From: Bacteroidales bacterium
Lineage (GTDB): Bacteria > Bacteroidota > Bacteroidia > Bacteroidales > WCHB1-69
DNA length: 37,304 nt
Assembly (NCBI GenBank): GCA_017438945.1
Contig: JAFRUI010000029.1
Location: 1 to 37,304, forward strand
Direction: 5' to 3'
The position numbers were made by a program, and so were the translations under genes. The notes under the pieces were generated by a model. That model was not told the DNA's origin, ran no database searches, and saw nothing but the letters and a program-made list of their open reading frames with translations. Shown here piece after piece: positions 1 through 37,304 of the stretch (positions are counted from its first letter, which is position 1; every line of letters starts with the position of its first letter).

Positions 1-70
1 GCATTCAGCATTCAGCATTCAGCATTCAACATTCTACATTCTACATTCTTCATTCTTCATTCTACATTAA
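1..70 (+). repeat. heptamer array, CATTCA class
   Basis: Ten consecutive 7-bp units fill the leader of the malic enzyme gene: GCATTCA x4, ACATTCT x3, TCATTCT x2, ACATTAA. In the sense of the downstream gene the units contain C and almost no G. The array may extend left of the window. The same word recurs at 18636 and 20102 in the opposite orientation relative to its gene. Confidence 0.95.
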
Positions 71-76
71 AAATGC

Positions 77-84
77 TATCTTTG
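77..84 (+). promoter_or_regulatory. -7 promoter box of the malic enzyme gene
   Basis: TATCTTTG matches the Bacteroidota -7 consensus TAnnTTTG and lies 20 bp before the ATG at 105. No convincing -33 TTTG is seen, because that position lies in the CATTCA array. Confidence 0.55.
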
Positions 85-104
85 CCGCTTAAAATGGATA
101 TCGT

Positions 105-1553
105 ATGAAAAACAGTATTGAACACCTTGACGACCTCTTCCCAAAGTCTTTTGACGAGGCGCAGAAAGCGAAAGCTAAAACTTTATTTTACAAACAGTTG
201 TCTTTGTTTGCACACGAATATTATCGGGGCAAGATGGGTACACTTCCCAAAGTGCCCATCGAGAGTCTGAACTGGTTCAATGCCTGGTACACGCCAGGCG
301 TATCAGCTATTTCCACAACCATCCGCGACAATAACGACCGTTCATTCCAACTCAGCAACCGCTCGAACATGGTGGCGGTGGTCAGCGACAGCACCCGTGT
401 GCTCGGAGACGGCGACTGCACGCCTCCCGGCGGACTGGGAGTGATGGAAGGCAAGGCGCTCATTATGAAATATTTGGGTGGCATCGATGCCAGTGCACTC
501 TGCATTGACAGCCGTGACGAGAACGGCGAGCATCAACCCGACAAGATCATCGACTTCGTGAAGATGGTGCAACCCAGCTTCGGGGCTATCAATCTTGAAG
601 ACATCTCGCAACCCAACTGTTTCCGCGTCTTAGACGTGCTGCGCGAGGAGTGCGACATCCCCGTCTGGCACGACGACGCGCAGGGCACCGCCTGCGTCAC
701 GCTTGCAGGTGTGCTGAACGCCCTCAAGATTGCGGGCAAACGTCTTGAGGATGTGAAGATTGTGCTCTACGGATCAGGCGCGGCAAACTGCAGCATCGCC
801 CGTCTGATGATGGAGGACGGCGCGAAGCCCGAGAACATCATTCTGTTCGACAGCAAGGGGGCGCTGCACAAGAACCGCGAACGCTACGCCAACGACCCGC
901 GCTACTATCCGCAGTGGAAGCTCTGTCAAACCACCAACCCAAAGTGCATTGACACCGAAGAGGAGGCTTTCAAGGGAGCGGACGTTTTGGTGGCGCTCTC
1001 CAAACCGGGTCCTGACACCATCAAGCCGGAGTGGGTCTCGCTGATGGCGGAGAAGGCCATCGTGTTCGCCTGCGCCAACCCGGTGCCGGAAATCTATCCG
1101 CATGCCGCCAAGGCTGCCGGCGCCTACATCGTGGCCACCGGTCGCGGCGACTTCCCCAACCAAGTCAACAACTCCGTCTGCTTCCCTTCCATCCTGAAAG
1201 GCACACTGCTCGTCGCTGCCCGCAAGATCACCGACGAGATGGCCGTCTGCGCCGCACATGCCATCGCCGACTTCGCCGAGCGACAGGGTATCAGTCCCGA
1301 CCGCATCATGCCCACCATGATGGACAGCGACCTCTTCCCTGAGGTAGCCGCCGCCGTGGGTGAATGCGCCGTGAAAGCTGGACTCGCCCGCAACCCGCTC
1401 ACCCGCGAGGAAATCCACAAACTGGCCAAACACGACATCGATGAAACCCACCGTGTGATGGATCTGCTTGTCGAACAAGGGATTATCGAGCAGTTCCCCG
1501 AGTCGGAAGTGAAACGGATTTTCGACGAAGTGGTGGCGACGATGACACGATGA
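105..1553 (+). CDS. malic enzyme (malate dehydrogenase, oxaloacetate-decarboxylating)
   Basis: Oxidative decarboxylation of malate to pyruvate and CO2 with reduction of NAD(P); cytosolic. The 482-residue protein carries the malic enzyme signature YTPGVSAIS near residue 62, the VMEGKA segment near residue 113, the metal-site motif HDDAQGTA near residue 190 and a Rossmann dinucleotide loop GSGAAN near residue 225, followed by an ACANPVPE block. It is the short bacterial form without a phosphotransacetylase tail. Which cofactor it uses cannot be told from the sequence. The start is the ATG 20 bp after a -7 box. The last residues and the TGA stop are encoded inside a CGATGAG octamer array, so the C-terminal MTR is repeat-derived. 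Pyruvate phosphate dikinase at 4655 could work with it in C3/C4 interconversion. Confidence 0.93.
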   Translation: MKNSIEHLDDLFPKSFDEAQKAKAKTLFYKQLSLFAHEYYRGKMGTLPKVPIESLNWFNAWYTPGVSAISTTIRDNNDRSFQLSNRSNMVAVVSDSTRVLGDGDCTPPGGLGVMEGKALIMKYLGGIDASALCIDSRDENGEHQPDKIIDFVKMVQPSFGAINLEDISQPNCFRVLDVLREECDIPVWHDDAQGTACVTLAGVLNALKIAGKRLEDVKIVLYGSGAANCSIARLMMEDGAKPENIILFDSKGALHKNRERYANDPRYYPQWKLCQTTNPKCIDTEEEAFKGADVLVALSKPGPDTIKPEWVSLMAEKAIVFACANPVPEIYPHAAKAAGAYIVATGRGDFPNQVNNSVCFPSILKGTLLVAARKITDEMAVCAAHAIADFAERQGISPDRIMPTMMDSDLFPEVAAAVGECAVKAGLARNPLTREEIHKLAKHDIDETHRVMDLLVEQGIIEQFPESEVKRIFDEVVATMTR

Positions 1554-1618
1554 GACGATGACACGATGAGGCGATGAGGCGATGAGACGATGAGACGATG
1601 AGACGATGAGACGATGAA
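1539..1618 (+). repeat. octamer array, CGATGAGA class
   Basis: Ten consecutive 8-bp units of (A/G)CGATGA(G/C/A). Each unit holds a TGA and, because the unit is 8 bp, successive TGAs fall in different frames. The TGA at 1551-1553 is the stop of the malic enzyme. The same word recurs in reverse complement at 23463 and 25763, and again at 36868. Confidence 0.95.
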
Positions 1619-1632
1619 AGGGACTTTACAGA

Positions 1633-1677
1633 CACCAATCACCAACTCAATAACCAATAACCCATAACCAATAACCA
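1633..1677 (+). repeat. ACCAATC and ATAACCA arrays before the acyl-CoA reductase start
   Basis: A short ACCAATCACCAACTCA stretch is followed by four heptamers (ATAACCA, ATAACCC, ATAACCA, ATAACCA), then TTA and the ATG at 1681. There is no Shine-Dalgarno sequence. The leader contains essentially no G. The same order of words leads into the PspC gene on the other strand. Confidence 0.9.
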
Positions 1678-1680
1678 TTA

Positions 1681-2712
1681 ATGTTCACCAACAACATCCA
1701 AGCATTCAAACAGTTAGGTCAAAACCTCGCTGTCCCGCAATGGGTTGACGCCACCTTCGGGGAGGCCATTGAGCGGCAGTACCGCGAGAACAGTTGGTTC
1801 ACTCCGGAGTTCTGCCGGCACGCGCTATACGCCATCGGGCAGATGCTTGCGCCCGATGCGTTGGACACGTATCACGCCCAATACCAAGGCGTTGCACTGG
1901 CTAACGCACGACGTAAGCGCGTCGCGGTGATCTCCGCCGGCAACATTCCCTTGGCCGCCTTCCACGACTTCTTCTGCATCCTCGTTAGCGGCAATGACTA
2001 CCAAGGAAAACTCTCTTCGCAGGATAAGCACCTGTTGCCCGTGCTCGCACAGGAACTCATTCGCATCGAGCCTGCATTCGCTGAACGGATCTCTTTTGTT
2101 GAGAAAGTTGCCGATTTCGATGCAATCATTGCTACGGGAAGCAACAACTCAGCCCGTTACTTCGACTACTACTTCAGCAAATACCCGCACATCCTGCGCA
2201 AGAACCGCAACAGCGTGGCCGTCCTCAACGAAACGGAGAGCGACGACGAACTTCGTGCCCTCGCAGACGACATCTACCTCTATTTCGGACTCGGTTGCCG
2301 TTCCGTCTCCAAGCTGTTCGTACCGCGAAATTACGATTTCGTGCCGTTTTTGCAAATTTTAACACAGGAAAGTCAACCCATCGCCCTGCATCACCAGTTC
2401 AACAACAACCTGGAATACCAAAAGGCTGTCCATCTGATGAACCAGATTCCCTATATGGATGCAGGAACCTTCCTTCTTGTTGAGAATCAGAATTATGCGT
2501 CTCCCATTGGGATGATATACTACGAATTCTACGATGACATCGAAACGGTCAACCGCCGTTTGGAAACCGACTCCGATCTTCTGCAATGCATCGTCAGCAA
2601 CGACCCGCACATCACCCGCGCGGAGCCTTTCGGCAGTGCCCAATCCCCCACCCTCTCCGACTATCCCGATGGCATTGACACGCTACGCTGGTTGTTGGCT
2701 GTTGGCTGTTAG
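1681..2712 (+). CDS. acyl-CoA reductase, LuxC family
   Basis: Probably reduces a fatty or aryl acyl-CoA (or thioester) to an aldehyde with a nicotinamide cofactor; cytosolic. The 343-residue protein has the LuxC/aldehyde-dehydrogenase-like layout common in Bacteroidota: an SAGNIPLAAFHDF segment near residue 86, an ATGSNNSARYFDYYF motif near residue 157 and the catalytic cysteine Cys206 in YFGLGCRSVSK. The ATG at 1681 follows directly on the ATAACCA array. The 3' end runs into a TTGGCTG heptamer array: the last residues (LLAVGC) and the TAG stop come from repeat units, so the natural C-terminus may have been eroded or replaced. It follows the malic enzyme on the same strand. Its physiological acyl substrate cannot be inferred here. 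Confidence 0.85.
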   Translation: MFTNNIQAFKQLGQNLAVPQWVDATFGEAIERQYRENSWFTPEFCRHALYAIGQMLAPDALDTYHAQYQGVALANARRKRVAVISAGNIPLAAFHDFFCILVSGNDYQGKLSSQDKHLLPVLAQELIRIEPAFAERISFVEKVADFDAIIATGSNNSARYFDYYFSKYPHILRKNRNSVAVLNETESDDELRALADDIYLYFGLGCRSVSKLFVPRNYDFVPFLQILTQESQPIALHHQFNNNLEYQKAVHLMNQIPYMDAGTFLLVENQNYASPIGMIYYEFYDDIETVNRRLETDSDLLQCIVSNDPHITRAEPFGSAQSPTLSDYPDGIDTLRWLLAVGC

Positions 2713-2750
2713 CTGTTGGCTGTTAGCTGTTGGCTGTTGGCTGTTAGCTG
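2695..2750 (+). repeat. heptamer array, TTRGCTG class
   Basis: Eight exact 7-bp units in the order TTGGCTG x2, TTAGCTG, TTGGCTG, TTAGCTG, TTGGCTG x2, TTAGCTG. The TAG at 2710-2712 in the third unit is the stop of the acyl-CoA reductase. Confidence 0.95.
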
Positions 2751-2776
2751 TTCTACTTGCGAGAGACTGATACCTA

Positions 2777-2818
2777 ATAACAATAACTATAACTATAACA
2801 ATAACTATAACTATTACC
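2777..2818 (+). repeat. hexamer array, ATAACT class
   Basis: Seven 6-bp units: ATAACA, ATAACT x2, ATAACA, ATAACT x2 and a degenerate ATTACC. It is followed at once by the CTAACTA array. The same pair of words, in the same order on the + strand, sits at 28485-28529. Confidence 0.93.
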
Positions 2819-2826
2819 CCAAATTG

Positions 2827-2882
2827 CTAACTACTAACTACTAATTACTAACTGCTAACTAATCACTCTTCACTAATCACAA
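2827..2882 (+). repeat. heptamer array, CTAACTA then ATCAC class
   Basis: Five CTAACTA-type heptamers are followed by ATCACTC, TTCACTA and ATCACAA, ending 5 nt before the ATG of the histidine kinase. G is almost absent in this leader. Confidence 0.92.
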
Positions 2883-2887
2883 GAAAA

Positions 2888-4438: not shown

Positions 4439-4473
4439 TTGGCCATTAGCTTTTAGCTATTAGCTGTTGGCAA
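4439..4473 (+). repeat. heptamer array, TTRGCTN class, 3' of the histidine kinase
   Basis: Five units (TTGGCCA, TTAGCTT, TTAGCTA, TTAGCTG, TTGGCAA) begin at the first base after the TAA stop. Confidence 0.9.
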
Positions 4474-4562
4474 TTTGTTGGCCAGCACTTGTTAGATTCC
4501 CACTTTTAAGAAAGCCAGGGGGAATTTAACCATGAATTATGAATGAATTAATAATGTAACAA

Positions 4563-4597
4563 AAAGCAAAGAGCTAAAGGCTAATAGCCAAAAGCAA
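4563..4597 (-). repeat. heptamer array, TTRGCTN class, 3' of pyruvate phosphate dikinase
   Basis: Five units on the + strand (AAAGCAA, AGAGCTA, AAGGCTA, ATAGCCA, AAAGCAA). Read on the minus strand they are the TTRGCT word in the sense of the dikinase gene, lying just past its terminator. The array is an imperfect inverted partner of the one at 4439. Confidence 0.85.
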
Positions 4598-4638
4598 AAA
4601 AAAAGCAGCGGCATAAAATTTACACCGCTGCTTTTTCT
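4598..4638. terminator. bidirectional intrinsic terminator
   Basis: AAAAAGCAGCGG (4600-4611) and CCGCTGCTTTTT (4625-4636) form a 12-bp stem with a 13-nt loop. There are A and T runs on both sides, so it can end both the histidine kinase (+) and the dikinase (-) transcripts. Confidence 0.9.
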
Positions 4639-7530: not shown

Positions 7531-8925
7531 TCAATCGCGGACACAGCGGACGGAAAAACCAGAATTATTAGTGCTATTGTAATGATAATCAAGCATGCTG
7601 ATGGCTAATAGGCTAAAGTATCTGGAGGCCTCATTCATTTCCCTCGTAGAAGACCATATACACGCTTCGGCACCCGCATTTACCAAGGTCGCGCCGAAGT
7701 AGCCTGCAGGAACAACGCTGAAGCCCGTGATATTGTTGGCGGTCAGGTCATTGCCGACCGAACAGTTGTATGTGGAACTGTCCCACCATGCCGTGGAGGC
7801 CATCGCCTTGGCAATGAAGTAATTGATGTCCGGGCCACAGGTATAGGCGGTCTGGTCCTTCACATACATCGTCAACTGTGACCACTCCGCCGAGCTCGGC
7901 AGATGCCAACCTGAAGGACAGACTCCCTGCACCCCGCTCGGATTGGCGTTGCTGGAGGACGCTCCGTGCATTGCCGCACGCCAGTTGTACAGGTACCCCC
8001 GTTCCTCCAACGGGATTCCGGAGCTGTCGTAATCGTAATAGTAGGGATCAAAATAGCTGTAGTCGTTTCCGCCGTAAGGGATGTCGGTGCCGTCCGCGTA
8101 TTTCGTGACACGCAAGTTTTCCTTCATCCAGCACTGGAAACCAATCTGCACGGTGTTATAGACGTTGCCCTCAACGTCTGTCAGTGTCGGAGACCCAGGG
8201 CAAGGTTGACCGTCTTTCAACGACATCGTGAAAGAGAGCTCAATTGTCTGAGATTCATACTGTCCCTGCCACAAGCGATTACTCTTCACCTCTTCTCCGC
8301 GAAAGATAGCATAACCTACGATATCCAACATATCGCCGAGGTCAAACGGATTGTCAGAAACACCACGAGAGAGGGATTTGGTCTGCAGGGGCGTTTCTTC
8401 GGCAACACCCATAAACGTTATGGCATAGTCGCTTCCGTTTCCAAGGTTCACCATCTTCACCGAGGCAGACTGCCCTTTCTGGCTGGCGGTCAGGAAATAG
8501 AGGCCCGCAGAAGGAATGGTGACGCGCAACGAATAGGTCCCCGGCTCGGAAGCCAAATAATGATTCGTCCCCACAACCCGGCCAGTAATGTCCGTCATCG
8601 CTATGGACACATCACCCGGCTCGCTCACCTGCAGGTTCACAAAAGTTGTACCTTCGAATGGGTTAGGGCTGTTTGGTGACAACCTTACCGATGCGCCTTG
8701 GAGCGTGCCAAAATCATCGATGCCCGTGGCGCTCAAATACAACACGGTGTCAGGCCACGTCAGTGTCTCCGACCAACCCTTATTGCCGTCGTAAACCTCC
8801 ACACGGGTGAGCTGAACATTATCGTTGTAGATATCATGCCCTGTGAATGTAAGGGTCAGCGACTGCGCCTGCAAGAAATTCAACGTCAGGCAAAATATCA
8901 AAAGAATAATGGAAAATCTTTTCAT
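7531..8925 (-). CDS. secreted FISUMP-domain protein with an internal T9SS-type Ig-like domain
   Basis: A 464-residue exported protein of unknown function. A signal peptide (MKRFSIILLIFCLTLNFLQA) is followed by a short beta domain. About residues 77-168 resemble a T9SS type-A sorting domain (SPNPFEG, then TDITGRVVG, then GLYFLTASQKG), but it lies in the interior instead of at the C-terminus. After a linker, residues about 245-464 form a FISUMP domain (Fibrobacter succinogenes major paralogous domain). It has the landmarks DVEGNVYNTVQIG, CWMKENLRV, GYLYNW, GVCPSGWHLPSSAEW, WSST and GFSVRCVRD. Cysteines in these motifs probably form disulfides. No promoter box was recognised upstream. The 143 bp between this gene and the dikinase hold no gene. 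Confidence 0.85.
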   Translation of the reverse strand: MKRFSIILLIFCLTLNFLQAQSLTLTFTGHDIYNDNVQLTRVEVYDGNKGWSETLTWPDTVLYLSATGIDDFGTLQGASVRLSPNSPNPFEGTTFVNLQVSEPGDVSIAMTDITGRVVGTNHYLASEPGTYSLRVTIPSAGLYFLTASQKGQSASVKMVNLGNGSDYAITFMGVAEETPLQTKSLSRGVSDNPFDLGDMLDIVGYAIFRGEEVKSNRLWQGQYESQTIELSFTMSLKDGQPCPGSPTLTDVEGNVYNTVQIGFQCWMKENLRVTKYADGTDIPYGGNDYSYFDPYYYDYDSSGIPLEERGYLYNWRAAMHGASSSNANPSGVQGVCPSGWHLPSSAEWSQLTMYVKDQTAYTCGPDINYFIAKAMASTAWWDSSTYNCSVGNDLTANNITGFSVVPAGYFGATLVNAGAEACIWSSTREMNEASRYFSLLAISMLDYHYNSTNNSGFSVRCVRD

Positions 8926-9005: not shown

Positions 9006-9078
9006 TCGCCGAAAACACCTTCGCTGAATTCGTCAAATTCGCCGAAAACATTTTCGCTAAATTCGTCAAATTCGCCGA
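9006..9078. repeat. 33-bp tandem duplication
   Basis: Two 33-bp units (9006-9038 and 9039-9071) beginning TCGCCGAAAACA differ at about four bases, and are followed by a 7-bp partial unit TCGCCGA. It lies between the YbjQ stop and the FISUMP gene start. The unit itself contains AATTCGTCAAATTCGCCGA sub-repeats. Confidence 0.9.
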
Positions 9079-9080: not shown

Positions 9081-9401
9081 CTACGCCACGGTCACGGCGG
9101 TTCCTGACGCGGTGACCATCAACATGCCGTTGTTCTCTCCCAGCACTTCGTAATCGAGATCGATGCCGACCACAGCGTTGGCACCCTTCTCCATGGCGCG
9201 CTGTTCCATTTCCCGCATGGCGGCGTCGCGGGCCTGCGTCAGCTCGTCCTCGTAGGAGCTCGAGCGGCCGCCCACGATGTTGCGGACCCCCGCAAAGAAG
9301 TCCCTCACGAAATTGACACCGGCAATAACCTCGCCGAACACAATGCCATGATAGTTTACAATCTGTTTTCCTTCGATGGTTTGGGTGGTGGTTAATATCA
9401 T
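9081..9401 (-). CDS. YbjQ/UPF0145 family protein
   Basis: A 106-residue protein of the heavy-metal-binding-like YbjQ family, fold known and role unclear. Family landmarks are [14 protein letters not shown] at the N-terminus, GIVFGEVI near residue 19, [17 protein letters not shown] near residue 35, an amphipathic helix rich in Ala, Arg and Glu, and [13 protein letters not shown] near residue 74. It is full length for the family. The start is the ATG at 9401, 25 nt after a -7 box. It stands alone between the macroglobulin-like gene and the FISUMP gene, with the 33-bp duplication just past its stop. Confidence 0.9.
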
Positions 9402-15950: not shown

Positions 15951-15980
15951 TGAGGGCAAATCCGCCCATTTTCTCAACAC

Positions 15981-16036
15981 AAATCACAAATCACAAGTCA
16001 CAAGTCACAAGTCTCAAATCACAAGTCTCAAATCAC
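15981..16036 (-). repeat. heptamer array, AARTCWC class, abutting the TolC stop
   Basis: Eight units on the + strand (AAATCAC x2, AAGTCAC x2, AAGTCTC, AAATCAC, AAGTCTC, AAATCAC). In the sense of the TolC gene they read GTGATTT or GTGACTT and start at the last base of its TAG stop. Confidence 0.95.
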
Positions 16037-17346: not shown

Positions 17347-17376
17347 ATTACCAAGCATTTGCCTCTACCGAGGCTA

Positions 17377-17404
17377 ATTATCAATTATCAATTATCAATT
17401 CTGA
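17377..17404 (-). repeat. heptamer array, ATTATCA class
   Basis: ATTATCA x3 then ATTCTGA on the + strand. In the adaptor gene sense it reads TGATAAT, and the TGA at 17395-17397 within a unit is the stop codon of the adaptor gene. Confidence 0.9.
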
Positions 17405-18483
17405 ATTACCTTCGTGCCCCGCACTTTCTCCCCTTCTTTCAACCCGCTGGTCACCACGATGTTGAGGCCGTCGCTGAGGCCGGTGGTGATGCTACGGCGT
17501 TCGTAGTCGTTGCCTTTCTTGACATAGACGAAGGTGGAGTCGCCGGAGAACTCCAAGGCGCTCTCGGGGATGGCGAGGACGTGCTCGGCACTCTCCAAGA
17601 CGAGCTCGGCATTGGCGCTGTAGCCGGAACGGATCTTGTTGTCGCTCTGCGGCTTGACGGCGGCACGGATCTCGAACTGGTTGGCCCCGTTATTCTGCAC
17701 GGCCTTCGGGGAGATGTACTCCAACACGGCGTCGAAGCTGTAGTCCTGCAATGCCCCGATGGTGATCTTCAGCGGGGTGCCCTCACGCAGCGTACCGACC
17801 TCCGTTTCATCGACGTTCCCCTTGAAGATCAGGTCGTTCATGTCGGCAACGGTGGCGACCGTGGTGCCGTCGTTCAAGGTGTTGGCTTGGATGACGGAAT
17901 TACCGACTTTCACCGGCACGTCGAGGATCAAGCCCGAGATAGTGGAGCGGATGAGCGTGGAGCTGGACTTGGCGTTCGTGGAGGAGACACCGTCGCGGAT
18001 GATCTCTAACGCATCCTGCGCCGCCGACTTCTCCTCCCTGACCTGCTGCAACGCCTGCGTCACCTGCTCGAACTCCTCGTTGCTGACCAACTTCTTGTCG
18101 TACAAGGCTTTCTCGCGGTCGTAGTTGGCCTTGGCCTGGTTGTAGTTGATGTCGGCCAAGCGCACCCTACTCTGCGCCGCACTCAGCGAGTTCATGTCGG
18201 GGATGACCTTCAGCTTGGCGATGACCTCGTTCTCCTTCACCTCCTGACCGGCCTCCTTGTACAGCTCGGCGATGATGCCGTTGATCTGCGGCTTCACGGC
18301 CACCTCGTTGCGCGGACCTATCTGTCCGGTGATCAGCGTCTTCCGACTGATGTCCATGTACGTGACCTCGTACTCGTTGAAGACCTCCTTCTCGGGTCTC
18401 GACTTCTTGAAGAGGAACACGAAGGTTCCGATGAAGATGAGGGCGATTAATCCAAAAATCAAATACTTAATACCTTTTTTCAT
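17395..18483 (-). CDS. periplasmic adaptor subunit (HlyD/MacA type)
   Basis: Membrane-fusion protein that links the inner-membrane ABC transporter to TolC. The 362-residue protein has one N-terminal TM helix (residues about 6-26), a lipoyl/barrel-sandwich segment split around a coiled coil (QSRVRLADINYNQAKANYDREKALYDK, about residues 103-130, and a second helix to about 165), a beta-barrel domain and a membrane-proximal domain ending in EGEKVRGTKVIQN. The ATG at 18483 is preceded by a hairpin-rich intergenic element. The last codon and stop lie in the ATTATCA array. Confidence 0.93.
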   Translation of the reverse strand: MKKGIKYLIFGLIALIFIGTFVFLFKKSRPEKEVFNEYEVTYMDISRKTLITGQIGPRNEVAVKPQINGIIAELYKEAGQEVKENEVIAKLKVIPDMNSLSAAQSRVRLADINYNQAKANYDREKALYDKKLVSNEEFEQVTQALQQVREEKSAAQDALEIIRDGVSSTNAKSSSTLIRSTISGLILDVPVKVGNSVIQANTLNDGTTVATVADMNDLIFKGNVDETEVGTLREGTPLKITIGALQDYSFDAVLEYISPKAVQNNGANQFEIRAAVKPQSDNKIRSGYSANAELVLESAEHVLAIPESALEFSGDSTFVYVKKGNDYERRSITTGLSDGLNIVVTSGLKEGEKVRGTKVIQN

Positions 18484-18536: not shown

Positions 18537-18640
18537 TTGCCCCTCCGGGGCTGCTCAAGGAAGTAGTTCTGATACCCCCTGCCCTTCGGGCATCCCCCCT
18601 AAAGGGGGGAATGGTGCTTCGACCGTATCTTTTGTCATTC
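18537..18640 (-). repeat. ~105-bp hairpin-rich dispersed element, copy 1
   Basis: Contains GCCCC-TCC-GGGGC, GCCC-TTC-GGGC and CCCCCC-TAAA-GGGGGG (18594-18609) hairpins, ending GTATCTTTTGTCATTC and running straight into the CATTCAG array. Copy 2 at 20002-20106 differs by about eight substitutions and one indel (my hand count). Both copies lie between genes of the same operon, just past a permease stop codon. Confidence 0.9.
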
Positions 18641-18698
18641 AACATTCAGCATTCAGCATTCAACATTCAACATTCAACATTCAACATTCAGCATTCAC
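18636..18698 (-). repeat. heptamer array, CATTCAR class, 3' of the first permease
   Basis: Nine units on the + strand (CATTCAA, CATTCAG x2, CATTCAA x4, CATTCAG, CATTCAC). In the permease sense each reads with a TGA, and the one at 18695-18697 is the permease stop. Confidence 0.95.
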
Positions 18699-20001: not shown

Positions 20002-20106
20002 TTGCCCCTTCGGGGCTGCTCAAGGAATATGTTTTCATACCCCCCTGCCCTGCGGGCATCCCCCCTAAAGGGGGGAATGGTCCTTCGACCGTATCTTTTG
20101 TCATTC
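20002..20106 (-). repeat. ~105-bp hairpin-rich dispersed element, copy 2
   Basis: Second copy of the element at 18537, with GCCCC-TTC-GGGGC, GCCC-TGC-GGGC and CCCCCC-TAAA-GGGGGG (20060-20075). Like copy 1 it lies between a permease stop with a CATTCAG array and the next start codon of the operon. Confidence 0.9.
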
Positions 20107-20122
20107 AGCATTCAGCATTCAT
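20102..20122 (-). repeat. heptamer array, CATTCAG class, 3' of the other permease
   Basis: Three units (CATTCAG x2, CATTCAT), ending 2 nt before the permease stop codon on the minus strand. Confidence 0.9.
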
Positions 20123-21400: not shown

Positions 21401-22123
21401 CTATTTCATAATAGTGGTGGTGCCGAAAATCGAGGCTTTGTGCTGCTCGTTGAGTGTCGTCTCGCCGATGATGCCGTCTTTGATGTGGATGATCTTGTCG
21501 GTGCAGTTGGCCACGCCGCTCTCGTGCGTCACCACGATGATGGTAACTTTCTCGGTGCGATTGAGCTCGGTGAGCAAATCCATGACCTCCACGGAGGTCT
21601 TGGAGTCGAGAGCACCGGTGGGCTCGTCAGCCAGCAGAATGCGCGGATTCGTGATGAGCGCCCGCGCGATAGCCACACGCTGCTTCTGTCCACCCGATAG
21701 CTCGTTGGGGTAATGCATGGCCCAATCCGCCAAACCGAAATGCTCTAAGAAGTGCATGGCTAACTCGTTGCGCTTCTTGCGACTCACCCCTTGGTAGTAC
21801 AACGGCAACTCCACGTTCTCGACCGCCGTCTTGAAGTTGATGAGGTTGAAGGACTGGAACACGAAGCCGATCATGCGGTTGCGATAATGCGCCGCCTCCT
21901 TCTCGCTCAGGTTCTTGATGAGCTTGCCGTCTAACCAGTATTCCCCTTCGTCGTAATTGTCGAGGATGCCGAGGATGTTCAGCAGGGTGGATTTTCCCGA
22001 GCCGGACGCCCCCATGATGGAGACGAACTCGCCCTCGCCAATCCCGAGGTCGATGCCCTTCAGCACGTGCAGGGGCTGGCCGTTGTTGTAGGTTTTATGG
22101 ATGTTGTGGAGGTCGATTAACAT
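21401..22123 (-). CDS. ABC transporter ATP-binding protein (LolD/MacB type)
   Basis: ATPase subunit of the pump, 240 residues. Walker A is GASGSGKST (near residue 40), the Q loop is at FVFQSFNLI, the signature is LSGGQKQR, Walker B is ILLADEPTGALDS, and the switch histidine is in VVTHE. It energises the two permeases that follow. The start at 22123 is an ATG preceded by TTAACA and a short run of C-form repeat units. It is separated from the PspC-like gene by a TTRGCT array. Confidence 0.95.
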   Translation of the reverse strand: MLIDLHNIHKTYNNGQPLHVLKGIDLGIGEGEFVSIMGASGSGKSTLLNILGILDNYDEGEYWLDGKLIKNLSEKEAAHYRNRMIGFVFQSFNLINFKTAVENVELPLYYQGVSRKKRNELAMHFLEHFGLADWAMHYPNELSGGQKQRVAIARALITNPRILLADEPTGALDSKTSVEVMDLLTELNRTEKVTIIVVTHESGVANCTDKIIHIKDGIIGETTLNEQHKASIFGTTTIMK

Positions 22124-22140
22124 GATGAAACTGTTGGTTG

Positions 22141-22182
22141 TTGGCTGTTAGCTAAAAGCCAACAGCTAAAAGCTAAAAGCTA
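22141..22182 (-). repeat. heptamer array, TTRGCTN class, with an inverted half
   Basis: On the + strand: TTGGCTG, TTAGCTA, AAAGCCA, ACAGCTA, AAAGCTA x2. The units next to the PspC-like stop (cta at 22180-22182) are in its sense TAGCTTT form. The two units nearer the ATPase start are inverted, so the array can fold back on itself. Confidence 0.88.
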
Positions 22183-23394
22183 AATACTATCAGTTTTTAT
22201 TAACGTACTATCACTCTTTTTATTGCCACTGATATGTAGATTCACGCCTTTGTCGGGATTGGTTTGGATAGTGATGTCGTAGGAGGTGTTTTCGTCGCGG
22301 AGCTCATCGAGTACGGGATCAATGATACTGTCGAGTTCTTTGGTGCCGTAGTAGCTGTCGGTGCTGATGTAGTCGTGGTCTTCGAACCAGCGTTCCCACT
22401 GCTCACCCGTGCGCTCGAGCCGCTTCCCGATGTCATCGCGCTTGTCCATCTCGATGGCGAAACCGATGATGCCGAACAGGCTCAGAAGCCACACCGCCAA
22501 CAAGGTCCAGCCGACCCATTTGTGTTTACGTTCACCGTTTGCGGCACGCACGCACAACACCGCGATGCCGATGACAGGACAGAGCAGGAAGAGGGCGCAG
22601 CTGCCCAGCAACCCCATGTCGATGGCGTTGCCGAACGTGCCGGGCGCGTGCGTCAGCAAAGCCACGAACATGGCAATGAAGATGCCTAAAACGGCCACGG
22701 CAAGACTTGAACCTATAACAACACCAACCACTATCAGACAGATTTTCAATATCTTGCCAAATGTATTTGAACCATCACTTCGGGTACTGGGCTCCTGATG
22801 GAAATTATCAATATTCTCCAAAGTGGGTTCTATGCCCTGCATTTCAAGGAACTGGGCCTTGGTTTTGGCTTCCGGCATGATGATGAGCATAACCAAATAG
22901 ACGAGAATGCCCCAACCGAAACTGATAAGGGTGAGGACGATGAACAAAATCCGGGTGATGGCCGGATCGATGTCGAAATAGGCAGCAAGTCCGCTCGCCA
23001 CACCGCTCACCATGCGGTCATTGCTGTTGCGATAGAGTTTGCGCGGACGACGCGGTTTCCGCTCCGTGGTCCGACCGGAATTTCCCGTCGTGGCGTTGTC
23101 AGCGGAGGTACCACCGTCCGGTTGCCCCACCCCGCTCTCGTCATCGAACTGCTCGGGGCGACCGATAACCTCGATCACCTCTTCCACATCGTGGATTTCC
23201 ACAACGTTGCGGGCCTGGAGTTTGAAGGTGAGCAATTCCGCCATACGTTCTTCAATGTCGCGGATAATTTCTGCACGTTCCTCTTCGGGAAAACGTTTTT
23301 CAATGTCGGCGAGATACTGACTCAGCCGATCGCAAGCGTCATCGTCGATGTTGAAGACGACTCCACCAAGATTGATTGTTACGGTCTTTTTCAT
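22180..23394 (-). CDS. PspC-domain membrane protein
   Basis: Bacteroidota PspC-type protein of 404 residues, probably an envelope-stress or regulatory membrane protein. Residues 1-90 form a helical domain with conserved acidic and DIEERMAELL motifs typical of the family's N-terminus. A Gly/Thr/Arg linker follows. The PspC domain at about 130-195 begins RKLYRNSNDRMVSGVASGLAAYFDIDP and continues with two TM helices. Further TM helices lie at about 225-310, then a polar C-terminal tail. It is the second gene of the padR operon. The C-terminal codons end directly in a TAGCTTT repeat unit whose TAG is the stop. The leader consists of AAATCAC and AATAACC arrays. Confidence 0.9.
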   Translation of the reverse strand: MKKTVTINLGGVVFNIDDDACDRLSQYLADIEKRFPEEERAEIIRDIEERMAELLTFKLQARNVVEIHDVEEVIEVIGRPEQFDDESGVGQPDGGTSADNATTGNSGRTTERKPRRPRKLYRNSNDRMVSGVASGLAAYFDIDPAITRILFIVLTLISFGWGILVYLVMLIIMPEAKTKAQFLEMQGIEPTLENIDNFHQEPSTRSDGSNTFGKILKICLIVVGVVIGSSLAVAVLGIFIAMFVALLTHAPGTFGNAIDMGLLGSCALFLLCPVIGIAVLCVRAANGERKHKWVGWTLLAVWLLSLFGIIGFAIEMDKRDDIGKRLERTGEQWERWFEDHDYISTDSYYGTKELDSIIDPVLDELRDENTSYDITIQTNPDKGVNLHISGNKKSDSTLIKTDSI

Positions 23395-23405
23395 ATTTAT
23401 TTAAT

Positions 23406-23486
23406 GGTTATGGGTTATCGGTTATTGGTTATTGAAGCAGGTGATTTGTGATTTGTGATTGACATTCATCGTTTCATCGTCCTTCA
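23406..23486 (-). repeat. compound array between padR and the pspC-like gene
   Basis: On the + strand: GGTTATN x4 (23406-23433), GTGATTK x3 (23441-23461) and TTCATCG-type units (23463-23486). In gene sense the order is CGATGAA units holding the padR TGA stop (23484-23486), then AAATCAC, then AATAACC, then the pspC ATG. The same order occurs between the malic enzyme and the acyl-CoA reductase. Confidence 0.93.
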
Positions 23487-23813
23487 TCGCTTCAGATGTT
23501 CTACCGCATCCCTCAGCTCCTCCCAGCCGGCTTCAAGTTCGGCGAGGAAAGACCTGCCGGCTTCGGTGAGCTCATAATACTTGCGCGGGGGACCAGAGAC
23601 AGACTCCTGCCACTCGTATTGCAGGATACCGTTGTTCTTCAGGCGCGAAAGAAGCGGGTAAAGCGTGCCTTCCACCACAATCATCTTCGCCTCCTTCAAC
23701 TCGTTGATTATATCCGAGACATACGCAGGCTTTTTGTTGATAATCAAAAGGATGCAGTATTCCAAATACCCCTTCCGCATCTGAGATTTCACATTTTCCG
23801 CATTGATGTTCAT
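23484..23813 (-). CDS. PadR-family transcriptional regulator
   Basis: Winged-helix repressor-type protein of 109 residues, first gene of the efflux operon and the likely regulator of it. PadR landmarks are QMRKGYLEYCILLII (helix 1), the recognition region VSDIINELKEAKMIVVEGTLYPLLSRLKNNGILQYEW, and the wing GPPRKYYELTEAGRSFL, with a C-terminal dimerisation helix. I place the start at MNINAENVK (23813). An upstream in-frame ATG at 23870 would put the -7 box inside the coding region. The stop lies in CGATGAA repeat units. The promoter carries a near-perfect palindrome suited to autorepression. Confidence 0.93.
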   Translation of the reverse strand: MNINAENVKSQMRKGYLEYCILLIINKKPAYVSDIINELKEAKMIVVEGTLYPLLSRLKNNGILQYEWQESVSGPPRKYYELTEAGRSFLAELEAGWEELRDAVEHLKR

Positions 23814-23840
23814 CGTTTCTTGCTTTATAATTTGACGCGG

Positions 23841-23848
23841 CAAAGATA
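23841..23848 (-). promoter_or_regulatory. -7 promoter box of padR
   Basis: TATCTTTG on the minus strand, 27 nt before the ATG at 23813; matches TAnnTTTG. Confidence 0.6.
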
Positions 23849-23860
23849 CAAAATTTTTAA

Positions 23861-23879
23861 TACCTTGCATTGCAAAGTA
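23861..23879. promoter_or_regulatory. 19-bp palindrome, candidate PadR operator
   Basis: TACCTTGCATTGCAAAGTA is symmetric about its central T at eight of nine base pairs. It begins 12 bp upstream of the padR -7 box, across the region where the -33 contacts fall, and lies between the divergent padR and T9SS-cargo genes. Autoregulation by PadR is common in the family; binding here is inferred. Confidence 0.55.
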
Positions 23880-23995: not shown

Positions 23996-25681
23996 ATGAA
24001 GAAATTAAGTTTACTTTTGTTTTCGGTTTTGTTCGCCCTATGCGGGCTGAACGCCCAAACCGTTGTCCTCAGCGAGGATTTCTCCGCCATTGTGGACAGT
24101 AACTCCTACACCATCACCAATTCGCTGGACGAATACACGCAGGTGCCCGGCTGGACGGGTGACTGGGTGTATCCGAGCAACGGAAAGGTGAAGATCGGCA
24201 AGTCGGCCGAAGCGGGTTTCCTTCAAACCCCGGCACTCAACCTCTCCGCCAACAACGGTCAGTTCGTGGTAACCTTCGACGCTAAGGCGTGGACGAATGA
24301 CGCCACCAGCCTCATCGTGGCTGTGGACGGTGTCCCCTACACGGTGGAAGGTCTCAGCACGAGCACCTTTAACACCTTCTCTGTACCGCTCTCTGGCGGC
24401 ACAGCGGCCACTGTCGTCAAATTCCAAGGATTCCAGGCCAGCCACGGACGTTTCTTCCTTGATAACGTGATCATCACATCCCAGGAGCTGGGTCCCGACA
24501 CGGAAGCCCCGTTTGTGGCAAATGTGACCCCTTCCAACAACTCTCTGGCCGTCACCTTCAACGAAGTGCTGGATCCCTCCACTGCCCAGAATATCAGCAA
24601 CTACTCCCTCGACAACGGCATTTCTATCTCCTCCGCCACGCTGAACGGCAGTGTGGTCACGTTGGCCGTCTCCCCTGCCCTCACAGAAGGCAACACTTAC
24701 ACGCTGATAGTCAACAATGTGGCTGATGTTGCCGGCAATTTCTTGACCGCCGACACAATCACTTTCACCTACGGCGTCGCGCAGGATTTCCAAGTGGCCA
24801 ACATCGCGGCTCTCCGCGCCAAATGGACTGACGAGCTTGACGTCAACGGCACCCACTTCGGCAACGATGTCTACAAGCTCACCGGCCATGTGATTGTCAC
24901 CGGCATCAACGACAGCTACCGCCACCAGATCTTCATCCAAGATGCCTCCGGAGCTATCGTCATCGACGACCCCAACGGACTTATTACCAGCGCATTGGAA
25001 TCCGGTGATGAAATCTCAGACATCTATGGCAAACTCACCGACTACTACGGTCTGCTCCAGTTCGCCGTTTCTGAGCCCTACACGGCATCCGCACTCTCCA
25101 TCTACAACGACGTCACCCCGCTGACGGTCTCGCTCGCCGACTTACAAAACGTGAGCTACATGAACGCCCACCAGTGCGAGCTTATCCGCATGGAGAGCGT
25201 GAAGATCAATCCGCTCACCAGCAACGTTTTCGAGAATGGCAAAAAATACACCCTGACCCAAAATGGACAAACGGGCAACGGAATGTGGATCCATTTCTAT
25301 AACATTGAAGGCCTCACGGGCGAAGCCATCCCGACTTCTCCAGTGAACCTTCTAGGTGTGAACAAGATTTCCTACAGCGAGTATTACCTGATTCCGCGTA
25401 CGGGTGCCGACCTCGGCACGGGTCTTCCGCAGTACCTCACAGAGAACGACCTTGTGGTGTACCCCAACCCTGTCAGCAACAGACTCACCGTGACCCTCCG
25501 CACCGACAAATTCCAGATCTCGAACATGGCCGTTTATGACATCAACGGCAAACTGGTCCGCATGCTAGCTGTCAGCGACAACCAAATCGAGATGAACACG
25601 CAAGGCCTCGCCGCCGGAAGCTATTTCCTGCGCCTGAGCGACGGAAAGAACTGCGTGACGACGAAGTTCGTTAAGAAATAG
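23996..25681 (+). CDS. T9SS-exported multidomain protein with SbsA-type Ig-like domain
   Basis: A secreted, probably surface-attached protein of 561 residues. The signal peptide ends near CGLNAQ. Residues about 24-160 look like a jelly-roll/choice-of-anchor domain (SEDFSAI, GFLQTPALNLSANNGQFVVTFDAKAW). Residues about 165-262 are an SbsA-type Ig-like domain (VTPSNNSLAVTFNEVLDPSTA). About 270-460 form an OB-fold-like region (HVIVTGINDSYRHQIFIQDASGAIVIDD). The last ~80 residues are a T9SS type-A sorting domain (VVYPNPVSNRLTV, MAVYDINGKLVRML, GLAAGSYFLRL, TTKFVKK). Function is unknown. The TAG stop is the first codon of a TAGGACT array. Confidence 0.88.
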   Translation: MKKLSLLLFSVLFALCGLNAQTVVLSEDFSAIVDSNSYTITNSLDEYTQVPGWTGDWVYPSNGKVKIGKSAEAGFLQTPALNLSANNGQFVVTFDAKAWTNDATSLIVAVDGVPYTVEGLSTSTFNTFSVPLSGGTAATVVKFQGFQASHGRFFLDNVIITSQELGPDTEAPFVANVTPSNNSLAVTFNEVLDPSTAQNISNYSLDNGISISSATLNGSVVTLAVSPALTEGNTYTLIVNNVADVAGNFLTADTITFTYGVAQDFQVANIAALRAKWTDELDVNGTHFGNDVYKLTGHVIVTGINDSYRHQIFIQDASGAIVIDDPNGLITSALESGDEISDIYGKLTDYYGLLQFAVSEPYTASALSIYNDVTPLTVSLADLQNVSYMNAHQCELIRMESVKINPLTSNVFENGKKYTLTQNGQTGNGMWIHFYNIEGLTGEAIPTSPVNLLGVNKISYSEYYLIPRTGADLGTGLPQYLTENDLVVYPNPVSNRLTVTLRTDKFQISNMAVYDINGKLVRMLAVSDNQIEMNTQGLAAGSYFLRLSDGKNCVTTKFVKK

Positions 25682-25720
25682 GACTGAGGACTTAGGACTT
25701 AGGACTTAGGACTTAGGACC
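25679..25720 (+). repeat. heptamer array, TAGGACT class
   Basis: Six units: TAGGACT, GAGGACT, TAGGACT x3, TAGGACC. The first unit's TAG is the stop codon of the T9SS cargo gene. Confidence 0.95.
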
Positions 25721-25722
25721 AT

Positions 25723-25763
25723 AAAAAAAGCGTAGGTTGTTTGATACAGCCTACGCCTTTTTT
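25723..25763. terminator. bidirectional intrinsic terminator
   Basis: GCGTAGG pairs with CCTACGC, extended by three pairs including one G-U, flanked by a run of A on the left and of T on the right. It can serve both the T9SS cargo gene (+) and clpB (-), which converge here. Confidence 0.88.
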
Positions 25764-25802
25764 CATCGTCTCATCGCATCATCGCATCATCGCATCATCG
25801 CC
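25763..25802 (-). repeat. octamer array, CGATGA class, 3' of clpB
   Basis: Five + strand units (TCATCGTC, TCATCGCA x3, TCATCGCC). In clpB sense they read GGCGATGA and TGCGATGA and start at the first base after the TAA stop. Confidence 0.95.
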
Positions 25803-28400
<2,598 letters not shown>

Positions 28401-28484: not shown

Positions 28485-28529
28485 GATAACTATGACTATA
28501 ACTATGACTGCTAACTACTAATTGCTAAC
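28485..28529 (-). repeat. hexamer and heptamer block, 3' of the MATE gene
   Basis: On the + strand: GATAAC, TATGAC, TATAAC, TATGAC, then TGCTAAC, TACTAAT, TGCTAAC. The MATE stop (cta at 28518-28520) and its last three residues (VSN) are encoded inside the heptamers. The block matches the ATAACT-CTAACTA block at 2777-2861. Confidence 0.9.
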
Positions 28530-29863: not shown

Positions 29864-29905
29864 TTGGCCAAAAGCCAACAGCTAAAAGCTAACAGCCAAC
29901 AGCCA
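29864..29905 (-). repeat. heptamer array, TTRGCTN class, 3' of the MORN gene
   Basis: Six + strand units (TTGGCCA, AAAGCCA, ACAGCTA, AAAGCTA, ACAGCCA x2), ending 3 nt before the MORN-repeat gene's stop. In gene sense they read TGGCTGT and TAGCTTT. Confidence 0.93.
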
Positions 29906-29908
29906 AAA

Positions 29909-30981: not shown

Positions 30982-31009
30982 AACCTTGAACCTTGAACTT
31001 TTAACCTTA
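30982..31009 (-). repeat. heptamer array, AACCTTG class, 3' of the HdrC-like gene
   Basis: Four + strand units (AACCTTG x2, AACTTTT, AACCTTA). In gene sense they read CAAGGTT and TAAGGTT, and the array ends 8 nt after the HdrC-like stop. Confidence 0.88.
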
Positions 31010-31017
31010 AACGAAAA

Positions 31018-31617: not shown

Positions 31618-31618
31618 A

Positions 31619-32741: not shown

Positions 32742-32770
32742 TAAAAAAACGGCCGCCCAACAGCAGCCGT
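32742..32770 (-). terminator. intrinsic terminator of the CapD-like gene
   Basis: On the minus strand ACGGC and GCCGT arms are extended past one mismatch by two GC pairs, and are followed by seven T. It lies 21 nt beyond the CapD-like stop. Confidence 0.8.
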
Positions 32771-32791
32771 ATAATGTTTTCTCTTCAGGAA

Positions 32792-34765: not shown

Positions 34766-34810
34766 TTACAATCACACAGCGAGTCCGTATAGTTTCTTAA
34801 GAATAAATTG

Positions 34811-34818
34811 CAAAAATA
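34811..34818 (-). promoter_or_regulatory. -7 promoter box of the CapD-like gene
   Basis: TATTTTTG on the minus strand, 45 nt before the ATG at 34765, between that gene and the fabD terminator; matches TAnnTTTG. Confidence 0.55.
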
Positions 34819-34848
34819 AAAAAAATACAAACCGTACGTTTATTTTTG

Positions 34849-34884
34849 AAAAAAAACGATTCCCGCCTGTTTCTCGGGAATCGT
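34849..34884 (-). terminator. intrinsic terminator of fabD
   Basis: ACGATTCCCG (34856-34865) and CGGGAATCGT (34875-34884) form a perfect 10-bp stem with a 9-nt loop. On the minus strand it is followed by eight T. Confidence 0.92.
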
Positions 34885-34912
34885 AACTATTCATAACCTA
34901 AGAAGATCGGCA

Positions 34913-36813: not shown

Positions 36814-36845
36814 ATTTCGATTTTTGGATTTTCTTTCTCAGATGG

Positions 36846-36853
36846 CAAAAATA
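36846..36853 (-). promoter_or_regulatory. -7 promoter box of the guanylyltransferase-fabD operon
   Basis: TATTTTTG on the minus strand, 32 nt before the ATG at 36813; matches TAnnTTTG. A CGATGAG array begins 15 bp further upstream, over the expected -33 region. Confidence 0.55.
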
Positions 36854-36867
36854 CATTTTTTCCGAAC

Positions 36868-36931
36868 ACGATGAGACGATGAGACGATGAGGCGATGAAA
36901 CGATGAAACGATGAGACGATGACGCGATGAG
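36868..36931 (-). repeat. octamer array, CGATGAG class, upstream of the guanylyltransferase gene
   Basis: Eight + strand units (ACGATGAG x3, GCGATGAA, ACGATGAA, ACGATGAG, ACGATGAC, GCGATGAG). In the sense of the downstream gene (minus) it reads CATCGTCT, the C-bearing form, unlike the same word at 3' ends. Confidence 0.93.
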
Positions 36932-36936
36932 ACTGG

Positions 36937-36957
36937 TTTGAGCTTTGAACCTTGAGC
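36937..36957 (-). repeat. short heptamer array, TTTGAGC class
   Basis: Three units (TTTGAGC, TTTGAAC, CTTGAGC), related to the AACCTTG word at 30982. Confidence 0.7.
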
Positions 36958-37002
36958 AACGAAACAAGAGCGAAGATCCCTCTCCGCCCTTGTTTTTGGT
37001 AT

Positions 37003-37049
37003 AGACGGCGCCAACGGCGCGTCTCGAGACACAACGCTGGTGCTGTCTC
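37003..37049. repeat. two adjacent GAGAC-type palindromes
   Basis: AGACG-GCGCC (37003-37012) faces GGCGCGTCT (37016-37024), and GAGACA (37026-37031) faces TGTCTC (37044-37049). The junction GTCTCGAGAC is itself a perfect 10-bp palindrome. The block starts about 2 nt past the T9SS protein's stop and resembles the palindrome at 11444. Confidence 0.75.
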
Positions 37050-37051
37050 TA

Positions 37052-37304
37052 CTACCGCTTCACCACCTTCCGCATGGTCACGCCCTGCGGCACCGTGATA
37101 CGGAGCATATACACGCCCTTGGCGAGCTCGCCGATGTTCAGATCGTTCACGTTGTCGTAAACGCCCACCAACTGGCCCATCTGGCTGTAGCACTCCACTT
37201 TTTGCACATCAACCGCGTCGATGTGCAGCACACCCGTCGTCGGGTTAGGATAAACTGAGATGTTGTCCAGGTAGCGCTCGGTGTCCATGGCGTCGCCGCC
37301 AAAC
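37052..37304 (-). CDS. T9SS cargo protein, C-terminal part only (5' end outside window)
   Basis: The reading frame is open to the window edge, so only about 83 C-terminal residues are seen. They form a complete T9SS type-A sorting domain: LDNISVYPNPTTGVLHID, VECYSQMGQLVGVY, LNIGELAKGVYMLRIT and the terminal MRKVVKR. The in-frame Met at 37288 is internal to the linker and not the start. The protein is therefore exported and processed at the outer membrane; its functional domains cannot be seen. The stop is followed directly by GAGAC-type palindromes. Confidence 0.88.
   Translation of the reverse strand, partial: FGGDAMDTERYLDNISVYPNPTTGVLHIDAVDVQKVECYSQMGQLVGVYDNVNDLNIGELAKGVYMLRITVPQGVTMRKVVKR

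What the first reader, a model, noticed from the sequence alone, without database searches (positions are those of the whole stretch)
1..37304. Intergenic short tandem arrays obey a strand-polarity rule relative to gene ends
Over 20 arrays of 6-8-bp words occupy the gaps. Read in the sense of the gene they touch, arrays at 3' ends are always in the G-bearing form (CGATGAG, TTRGCTG, CTGAATG, GTGATTT, TAGGACT, TGATAAT, CAAGGTT). Arrays just before a start codon are always in the C-bearing, nearly G-free form (CATTCA, ATAACCA, AAATCAC, CTAACTA, ATAACT, CTAACCC, CATCGTCT). The same word flips strand to obey this: CATTCA at 1 versus 18636 and 20102; CGATGAG at 1539, 23463 and 25763 versus 36868; TTRGCT inverts at the convergent pair 4439 and 4563. 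Similar arrays (STRR) are known in cyanobacteria, but I know of no such polarity rule. G-free leaders might keep start codons unstructured in a phylum that rarely uses Shine-Dalgarno pairing; G-form, stop-rich tails might insulate 3' ends.
Basis: partly seen in the sequence, partly recalled or inferred. Interest (0 to 1): 0.85.

Follow-up and report, generated by a model that had tools for sequence, protein, structure and literature searches.

The report
Strand-polarised heptamer arrays flanking genes
In this rumen Bacteroidales genome and in other Bacteroidota, short repeated DNA words packed against gene ends mostly point their G-richer strand away from the gene, a rule already reported for other repeat words in two distant bacterial groups and still unexplained.

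Summary
In the window, 13 of 13 classified arrays of 6-8-bp words within 20 nt of a gene end obey it. In a 657-kb sample of the same MAG, arrays within 20 nt split 69 G: 12 C after stops and 8 G: 28 C before starts; with relatives and other Bacteroidota 208 of 247 obey. So it is strong (84%), not "always". Random flips through the same pipeline give 439:456 and 195:200. The two-part rule is one rule: the G-richer strand runs outward from the nearest functional block. G minus C predicts orientation better than stop or start codons. Arrays upstream of promoter-like boxes obey too (18 C: 6 G), so unstructured leaders alone cannot explain it, though folding fits the 5' side. At the same stop, relatives can carry unrelated words in the same orientation. 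The rule is not new in kind: Rehm 2015 (PMC4692102) reports it for GGGNATC/GGGGAYT heptamers in Xanthomonas and Nostoc. New here: a third phylum, dozens of words, and almost no quadruplex-capable arrays (4 of 313). The mechanism is open.

The parts
1..68 (+). CATTCNN array, C-form in the sense of gene 105-1553, upstream of its promoter-like box
77..84 (+). TATCTTTG, promoter-like (TAnnTTTG) between the array and the start at 105
   Evidence: motif recalled as the Bacteroidota -7 box
1538..1617 (+). CGATGANN array, G-form, overlaps the stop of malic enzyme gene 105-1553
1648..1681 (+). AATAACC array, C-form, abuts the start of the LuxC-like gene 1681-2712
2689..2752 (+). TTRGCTG array, G-form, contains the stop at 2712
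2777..2880 (+). ATAACT / CTAACTA / CTAATCA arrays, C-form, before the start at 2888 (the first is 64 nt from the upstream stop)
4445..4465 (+). ATTAGCT array, G-form, after the stop at 4438 (below the classifier's score)
   Evidence: read by eye
4560..4600 (-). TTRGCT-like array of the convergent gene, G = C in number, 54 nt from its stop
15978..16036 (-). GTGATTT/GTGACTT array, G-form on -, starts at the stop of the TolC-like gene 16036-17358
17376..17408 (-). TGATAAT array, G-form on -, spans the stop at 17395
18636..18697 (-). TTGAATG array, G-form on -, reaches the stop at 18695
20102..20121 (-). CTGAATG array, G-form on -, 3 nt after the stop at 20125
22131..22153 (+). TTGGCTG array, C-form in the sense of gene 21401-22123 (-), inverted to the next array (below the classifier's score)
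   Evidence: read by eye
22150..22184 (-). TTTAGCT array, G-form on -, at the stop of gene 22180-23394
23401..23434 (-). CAATAAC array, C-form on -, before the start at 23394
23441..23460 (-). AAATCAC array, C-form on -, mid-gap (23 nt from a stop)
23465..23494 (-). CGATGAA array, G-form on -, at the stop of gene 23484-23870 (PadR-like; below the classifier's score)
   Evidence: read by eye
25679..25719 (+). TAGGACT array, G-form, starts at the stop at 25681
25730..25756 (.). inverted repeat with T-runs on both sides (shared terminator-like hairpin) between two convergent arrays
   Evidence: read by eye
25763..25801 (-). GCGATGAT array, G-form on -, directly after the clpB stop at 25803
28486..28529 (-). 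AGTCATAGTTAT / AGTAGTTAGCA arrays, G-form on -, at the stop at 28518 (below the classifier's score)
   Evidence: read by eye
29867..29908 (-). TTRGCTN array, G-form on -, at the stop at 29909
30982..31012 (-). CAAGGTT array, G-form on -, 5 nt after the stop at 31018
36846..36853 (-). TATTTTTG, promoter-like, between the next array and the start at 36813
36868..36933 (-). CTCATCGT array, C-form on -, 54 nt before the start at 36813 and upstream of the promoter-like box

Best explanation
The arrays are fast-turning, dispersed heptamer-type repeats that come to rest against the edge of a functional block (a coding region, or a promoter plus its gene). Their polarity is a property of the DNA strand and not of the gene: the G-richer strand runs 5' to 3' outward from the block edge, so that the typical gap reads G-form, then C-form, on either strand. 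The mechanism I think most likely is copy-in at spacer DNA ends. A 3' end leaving the conserved block is extended by repeated copying from an array elsewhere, on that array's C-rich strand, so the new array is G-form outward. Later slippage changes copy number, and selection removes insertions that enter the block. Shown here: position, polarity, its presence in all gap types, word replacement at the same stop, shared vocabulary. Inferred: that orientation is fixed at birth. Speculative: the copy-in step.
For: Summed over the four sets, arrays within 20 nt of a stop are 106 G: 16 C in tandem and 28:8 in convergent gaps, and those within 20 nt of a start in divergent gaps are 7 C: 0 G. Arrays upstream of promoter-like boxes obey (18 C: 6 G). 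Gaps with two or more arrays: in the genus 31 of 61 run G...C and 2 run C...G (13 GG, 12 CC, 3 with a tie); elsewhere 9 of 14 and 1. Arrays sit closer to the ORF on the 5' side of their G strand: own 110 of 147, genus 97 of 131, others 48 of 64; medians 4 versus 63 nt in own; convergent and divergent gaps of these sets together 53 of 71. They are enriched at edges: in genus gaps of 350 nt or more, 10.3% of the first 15 nt after stops lie in G-outward and 3.1% in C-outward arrays, against 0.4% and 0.1% at 150-300 nt. Perfect arrays obey 28 of 31, degenerate ones (neighbour identity <0.8) 50 of 64, so no sign of slow sorting (not significant, p = 0.14). clpB genes 88-95% identical in DNA carry unrelated words after the same stop, all G-outward; 12 of 15 word clusters at 6 such ortholog groups are G. 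131 heptamer arrays use 49 words, about 120 expected at random. Non-array 3' flanks have no such skew (G 0.20, C 0.20). Rehm 2015 describes the same geometry in two other phyla.
Against: No growth direction is visible: purity does not differ between the two ends (n = 228, p = 0.15 and 0.47), nor do decayed flanks (n = 114, p = 0.38). No enzyme for copy-in was looked for. AATTATG turns round, and before starts it lies so that its ATG can be or overlap the start codon, which is selection on genes. At 3' sites TAG/TGA content predicts almost as well as G-C (log-likelihood 82.1 versus 77.1). The 5' bias is weaker without CCC words and nearly absent where stops are equal on both strands (6 C: 5 G). 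Before starts, ortholog groups with unrelated words give 3 C and 2 G clusters. Of the promoter-upstream cases 13 of 24 are tandem and could be read through from upstream, and some are orthologous to each other. One cyanobacterial plasmid gave 5 of 8.
Confidence: 0.38

Rival explanations
1. RNA-level selection, two separate pressures. Arrays arise in either orientation; before starts the G-poor form survives because it keeps the start region unpaired and free of spurious start codons, and after stops the G-form survives because it brings stop codons and avoids C-rich ribosome-free RNA.
For: Native array leaders are less structured than flipped ones (57 of 75, mean 5.4 kcal/mol); array-less leaders of the own MAG show no such effect. 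In the genus ATG and GTG/TTG are rarer in sense than antisense at 5' (fewer in 35 arrays, more in 8; fewer in 36, more in 8), and stops commoner in sense at 3' (84 vs 32). Translation in F. johnsoniae is tuned in part by structure and by A's upstream of the start (PMC6847099, passages). In tandem gaps, array-bearing stops rarely have a terminator-like hairpin (6 of 91 versus 53 of 271), so these arrays are probably often inside operons.
Against: Arrays upstream of promoter-like boxes obey. G-C beats stops and starts at both ends and wins when stops conflict, 25:11. By my reading the Xanthomonas unit GGGAATC holds no stop and no ATG/GTG/TTG on either strand, yet follows the rule. Degenerate arrays do not obey better than perfect ones. 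At stops the native form is, if anything, more structured.
Confidence: 0.36
2. Rho-dependent termination: C-rich, G-poor RNA just after a stop would be a Rho loading site and switch off the rest of the operon, so only G-form arrays are kept there.
For: 3' polarity is strong in tandem gaps (106 G: 16 C over four sets), and array-bearing tandem stops mostly lack terminator-like hairpins.
Against: Convergent 3' ends, where termination would do no harm, are also G-form (13:2 own, 6:2, 3:3, 6:1). Nostoc shows the rule, and cyanobacteria lack Rho (recalled). It says nothing about promoter-upstream arrays.
Confidence: 0.1
3. G-quadruplex or i-motif elements, as proposed for GGGNATC repeats.
For: Same geometry as Rehm 2015.
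Against: Only 4 of 313 genus arrays and 2 of 78 others have four tracts of three G; arrays with no GGG/CCC still give 107 G: 16 C after stops and 27 C: 13 G before starts in the genus.
Confidence: 0.03
4. Plain slippage seeded by each gene's own last codons, with polarity inherited from the G>C skew of the coding strand end.
For: The last 60 coding nt are G 0.274, C 0.224 in own; a CGATGA pair exists at the malic enzyme stop even in a relative without an array (L052).
Against: The skew is far smaller than 69:12; unrelated words follow similar coding ends; words are shared between loci far beyond chance; it does not cover 5' ends.
Confidence: 0.08
5. Artefact of gene calling or of base composition.
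For: Genes were called by my own script; starts are approximate.
Against: Random flips through the same pipeline are balanced; non-array flanks lack the 3' skew; arrays swallowed by ORFs are few (15 in own).
Confidence: 0.02

Closest known systems
G-rich heptamer repeats GGGNATC (Xanthomonas) and GGGGA(C/T)T (Nostoc PCC 7120), Rehm et al. 2015, PMC4692102 (passages and sections 10, 13, 16 read)
   Same: Heptamers, intergenic, overlap stop codons, hug the ORF on the 5' side of the G strand (28 vs 160 nt on average), sense strand after stops and antisense strand before starts, inverted pairs close together, rare between divergent ORFs, length and sequence variation between relatives.
   Different: One quadruplex-forming word type per lineage there; here dozens of words, almost none able to form quadruplexes; a different phylum; polarity looked at upstream of promoter-like boxes and across orthologous stops.
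TAACTGA direct repeats of Beggiatoaceae and some Bacteroidetes, MacGregor 2015, PMC4679880 (abstract, passages, sections 9 and 12 read)
   Same: Heptamer arrays with one preferred strand toward start codons; in one Bacteroidetes (F. litoralis) 12 of 14 sets forward before starts and one reverse just after a stop, as an outward rule predicts.
   Different: One word with G = C, so no G/C form; arrays mostly shorter; read as a translation regulator site. One TAACTGA array in the own sample.
Cyanobacterial STRR sequences (recalled; search listing only)
   Same: Degenerate heptamer arrays in spacers.
   Different: Words and polarity in cyanobacteria not established here; 250 kb of one Trichormus plasmid held too few arrays (5 of 8 within 60 nt obey).

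Membership tests
Rehm-type polar heptamer repeats | period of 7, mainly in spacers | tested here: met
   own: 131 of 182 non-coding arrays have period 7; array bases 6297 of 159368 non-coding vs 1498 of 497484 coding
Rehm-type polar heptamer repeats | G strand outward from the nearest ORF | tested here: met
   208 of 247 within 20 nt; 110 of 147 own by distance
Rehm-type polar heptamer repeats | unit GGGNATC or GGGGAYT able to form a quadruplex | tested here: not met
   4 of 313 genus arrays quadruplex-capable
Rehm-type polar heptamer repeats | preference for four units | tested here: inconclusive
   four copies is the commonest class (94 of 313), but the detection threshold shapes this
TAACTGA repeats (MacGregor) | unit TAACTGA | tested here: not met
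   1 of 161 own arrays
TAACTGA repeats (MacGregor) | arrays end within several nt of a start codon in one strand sense | tested here: met
   5' arrays peak 0-15 nt before starts; 28 C: 8 G in own
Cyanobacterial STRR | cyanobacterial heptamer words | not tested
   words recalled only
Terminal inverted element or hairpin between the two arrays of a gap | first and last array of a gap complementary beyond chance | tested here: not met
   genus 9 of 61 gaps, shuffled mean 9.6; outside the genus 6 of 14 versus 2.5, partly orthologous copies

The most novel reading that the evidence does not exclude
One strand-polar DNA process, shared by Bacteroidota, Xanthomonas and Nostoc, lays down tandem words only with the G-richer strand leaving a conserved block, much as telomere repeats point outward from a chromosome end; orientation is fixed at birth and does not depend on transcription, translation or quadruplexes.
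Probability: 0.27. Interest if true: 0.82.

Novelty: new variant of a known kind. Interest (0 to 1): 0.55.

Why it matters
The polarity was published in 2015 for quadruplex-forming heptamers and left unexplained. Finding it in a third phylum, on dozens of words with almost no quadruplex capacity, takes the leading structural explanation away and turns the question into how tandem arrays are born beside genes. It also gives a practical test set: hundreds of arrays, and orthologous stops where the word changes but the strand mostly does not.

Tried and rejected
Quadruplexes: nearly excluded for this genus. Stop codons as the only cause at 3': rejected by conflict cases and regression. Start-codon avoidance as the only cause at 5': with ATG equal on both strands the C-form still wins 21:3 in the genus. 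Hairpins between the two arrays of a gap: no excess in the genus (that script stopped with an error in its last, tRNA part, redone). Directional growth by purity gradient or flank decay: nothing seen. General base composition: not at 3'. Slow sorting by selection: no support. Arrays beyond terminator-like hairpins: too few and mixed, and my hairpin finder also takes some arrays for hairpins. Arrays beside tRNAs: 2 near 48 tRNAs, both in the predicted form but 63 and 91 nt away. Cyanobacterial plasmid: too few arrays, 5 of 8 obey. Twelve other families of the order: almost no arrays, so uninformative. Literature searches for such a rule in Bacteroidota; several listings were capped (20 of 267, 15 of 86, 10 of 1,295). 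In what was listed I saw none on polarity in Bacteroidota apart from the TAACTGA remarks, and most subscription papers are not in that library. Ties (G = C) were dropped from ratios; periods other than 6-8 were dropped from the main counts. TRF score thresholds were 36 in the main sets, 34 and 32.
Full report
What the window is. It is bases 1-37,304 of contig C3 of a 1.86-Mb, 44-contig MAG (63% complete). Its nearest named relatives are Bacteroidales MAGs such as RUG083 and RUG13189, several of them titled as rumen samples. The genes look ordinary: malic enzyme, LuxC-like reductase, histidine kinase, pyruvate phosphate dikinase, MacB-type permeases, ClpB and others.

Method. Genes were called with a codon-usage script, arrays with Tandem Repeats Finder, and each non-coding array was assigned to the nearest gene end and read in the sense of that gene. 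'G-form' means more G than C, 'C-form' the reverse. Main counts use periods 6-8 and distances under 20 nt.

The rule holds. Own MAG 69 G: 12 C after stops and 8: 28 before starts; same-genus genomes 30:6 and 1:11; named same-genus loci 18:4 and 4:14; 65 other Bacteroidota loci, many of them Pedobacter, 22:2 and 2:16. At any distance the own figures are 76:27 and 14:41. New stretches of six genomes behind those other loci give 7:0 and 0:3. In all, 208 of 247 in the first four sets. Random flips through the same pipeline gave 439:456 and 195:200 over 12 runs, so the pipeline does not make the signal. Within words seen at both ends the association stays (z = 5.8). It is not absolute: 39 of 247 break it, and AATTATG prefers the other way. 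At 5' ends in the own MAG, arrays without CCC are only 12 C: 8 G, and in the genus 5' arrays with equal stops on both strands are 6 C: 5 G.

One rule, not two. Sense G after a stop and sense C before a start are the same statement: the G-richer strand leaves the coding block. Of 61 genus gaps with two or more arrays, 31 read G...C on the + strand and 2 read C...G (13 GG, 12 CC, 3 ties); elsewhere 9 and 1 of 14. Arrays lie closer to the ORF on the 5' side of their G strand: 110 of 147 in own, median 4 versus 63 nt; convergent and divergent gaps of the three larger sets together 53 of 71, though most single groups are too small to be significant. In long gaps of the genus G-outward arrays fill 10.3% of the first 15 nt after stops and 0.4% at 150-300 nt. 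Of 214 arrays on the 3' side within 200 nt, 94 begin before the end of the stop codon; in cases read by eye the array then supplies the stop.

What predicts orientation. For 167 arrays after stops, G-C alone lowers the negative log-likelihood from 115.8 to 77.1, TAG/TGA to 82.1; for 87 before starts, G-C from 60.3 to 34.0, the next best (GTG/TTG) to 46.5. After stops, where the C-form has more stop codons the G-form is still chosen 25:11; where they are equal 19:5 (genus).

Leaders. Native orientation leaves the start region less structured, which array-less leaders of the own MAG do not show on flipping. But of the genus arrays with a TAnnTTTG box between array and start, 18 are C and 6 G (of the listed cases under 100 nt 17 are C and 2 G, some of them orthologous). 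A leader rule does not reach there unless there is read-through. At stops the native form is slightly more structured (unpaired probability -0.04, p = 0.035; folding energy p = 0.21).

Turnover. At the clpB stop the window has GCGATGAT; L147 (94.8% identical DNA over 1716 bases), L124 (92.7%, two units only) and L126 (88.0%) have GGCAAAA/GGCAATA; L127, L129, L132, L133, L135 and L137 (86-88%) show no array in the 66 nt printed. In L147 the old stop is gone and the array gives the new one. Of 12 ortholog groups with arrays after the stop in two or more genomes, 6 have unrelated words, and 12 of the 15 word clusters are G-form. Before starts only 5 such groups exist, 2 with unrelated words (3 C, 2 G). 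Words are shared between loci beyond chance: 131 heptamer arrays, 49 words, about 120 expected. So arrays seem to come from a common pool.

Prior work. Rehm 2015 (PMC4692102; passages and sections 10, 13 and 16 read) reports for GGGNATC and GGGGAYT heptamers that they lie within 50 bp of stops on the sense strand and of starts on the antisense strand, that they are nearer the ORF on their 5' side whatever its orientation, and that inverted pairs are common. MacGregor 2015 (PMC4679880; abstract, passages, sections 9 and 12) reports TAACTGA arrays oriented toward starts, also in a few Bacteroidetes. The rule is therefore known in kind. The additions here are the third phylum, many words with almost no quadruplex capacity (4 of 313), the promoter-upstream cases, and the change of word at a mostly constant strand sense.

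Mechanism. The data fit a DNA-level process that fixes the strand when an array is laid down next to a constrained edge; perfect arrays obey at least as often as degenerate ones (28 of 31 versus 50 of 64; difference not significant). They do not prove it: no growth direction was seen, and RNA-level selection at each end remains nearly as likely. I give 0.38 to the first and 0.36 to the second.

Noticed in passing
window about 18540-18630 and 20002-20095: A dispersed GC-rich element of about 90 bp (CCCCTYCGGGGCTGCTCAAGGAA ... GCATCCCCCCTAAAGGGGGGAATGGT) sits beside the CATTCA arrays; by eye, similar pieces follow malic enzyme in L054, L056 and L057.
   Followed up: no
L147 (end of clpB): The clpB stop is replaced by the array, which adds a few codons and its own TAG; gene ends can be rewritten by arrays.
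   Followed up: partly
own and genus sample: Array-bearing stops in tandem gaps rarely have a terminator-like hairpin after them (6 of 91 versus 53 of 271 without arrays), so these arrays are probably often inside operons.
   Followed up: partly
genus sample: The word AATTATG runs against the G rule; before starts it lies so that its ATG can be or overlap the start codon.
   Followed up: partly
L084 and L093 near 7663-7735, L100 9562-9647 (Pedobacter): The two arrays of one gap are the same word inverted (ATTGAATG ... CATTCAAT), which could fold into a stem; not general in the rumen genus.
   Followed up: partly
window 25719-25763: A shared two-way terminator-like hairpin is flanked on both sides by G-outward arrays, each lying between a stop codon and the hairpin.
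   Followed up: no
window 9006-9078: A 33-bp direct repeat of 2.2 copies just after the 3' end of a small gene at 9081-9401 (-).
   Followed up: no
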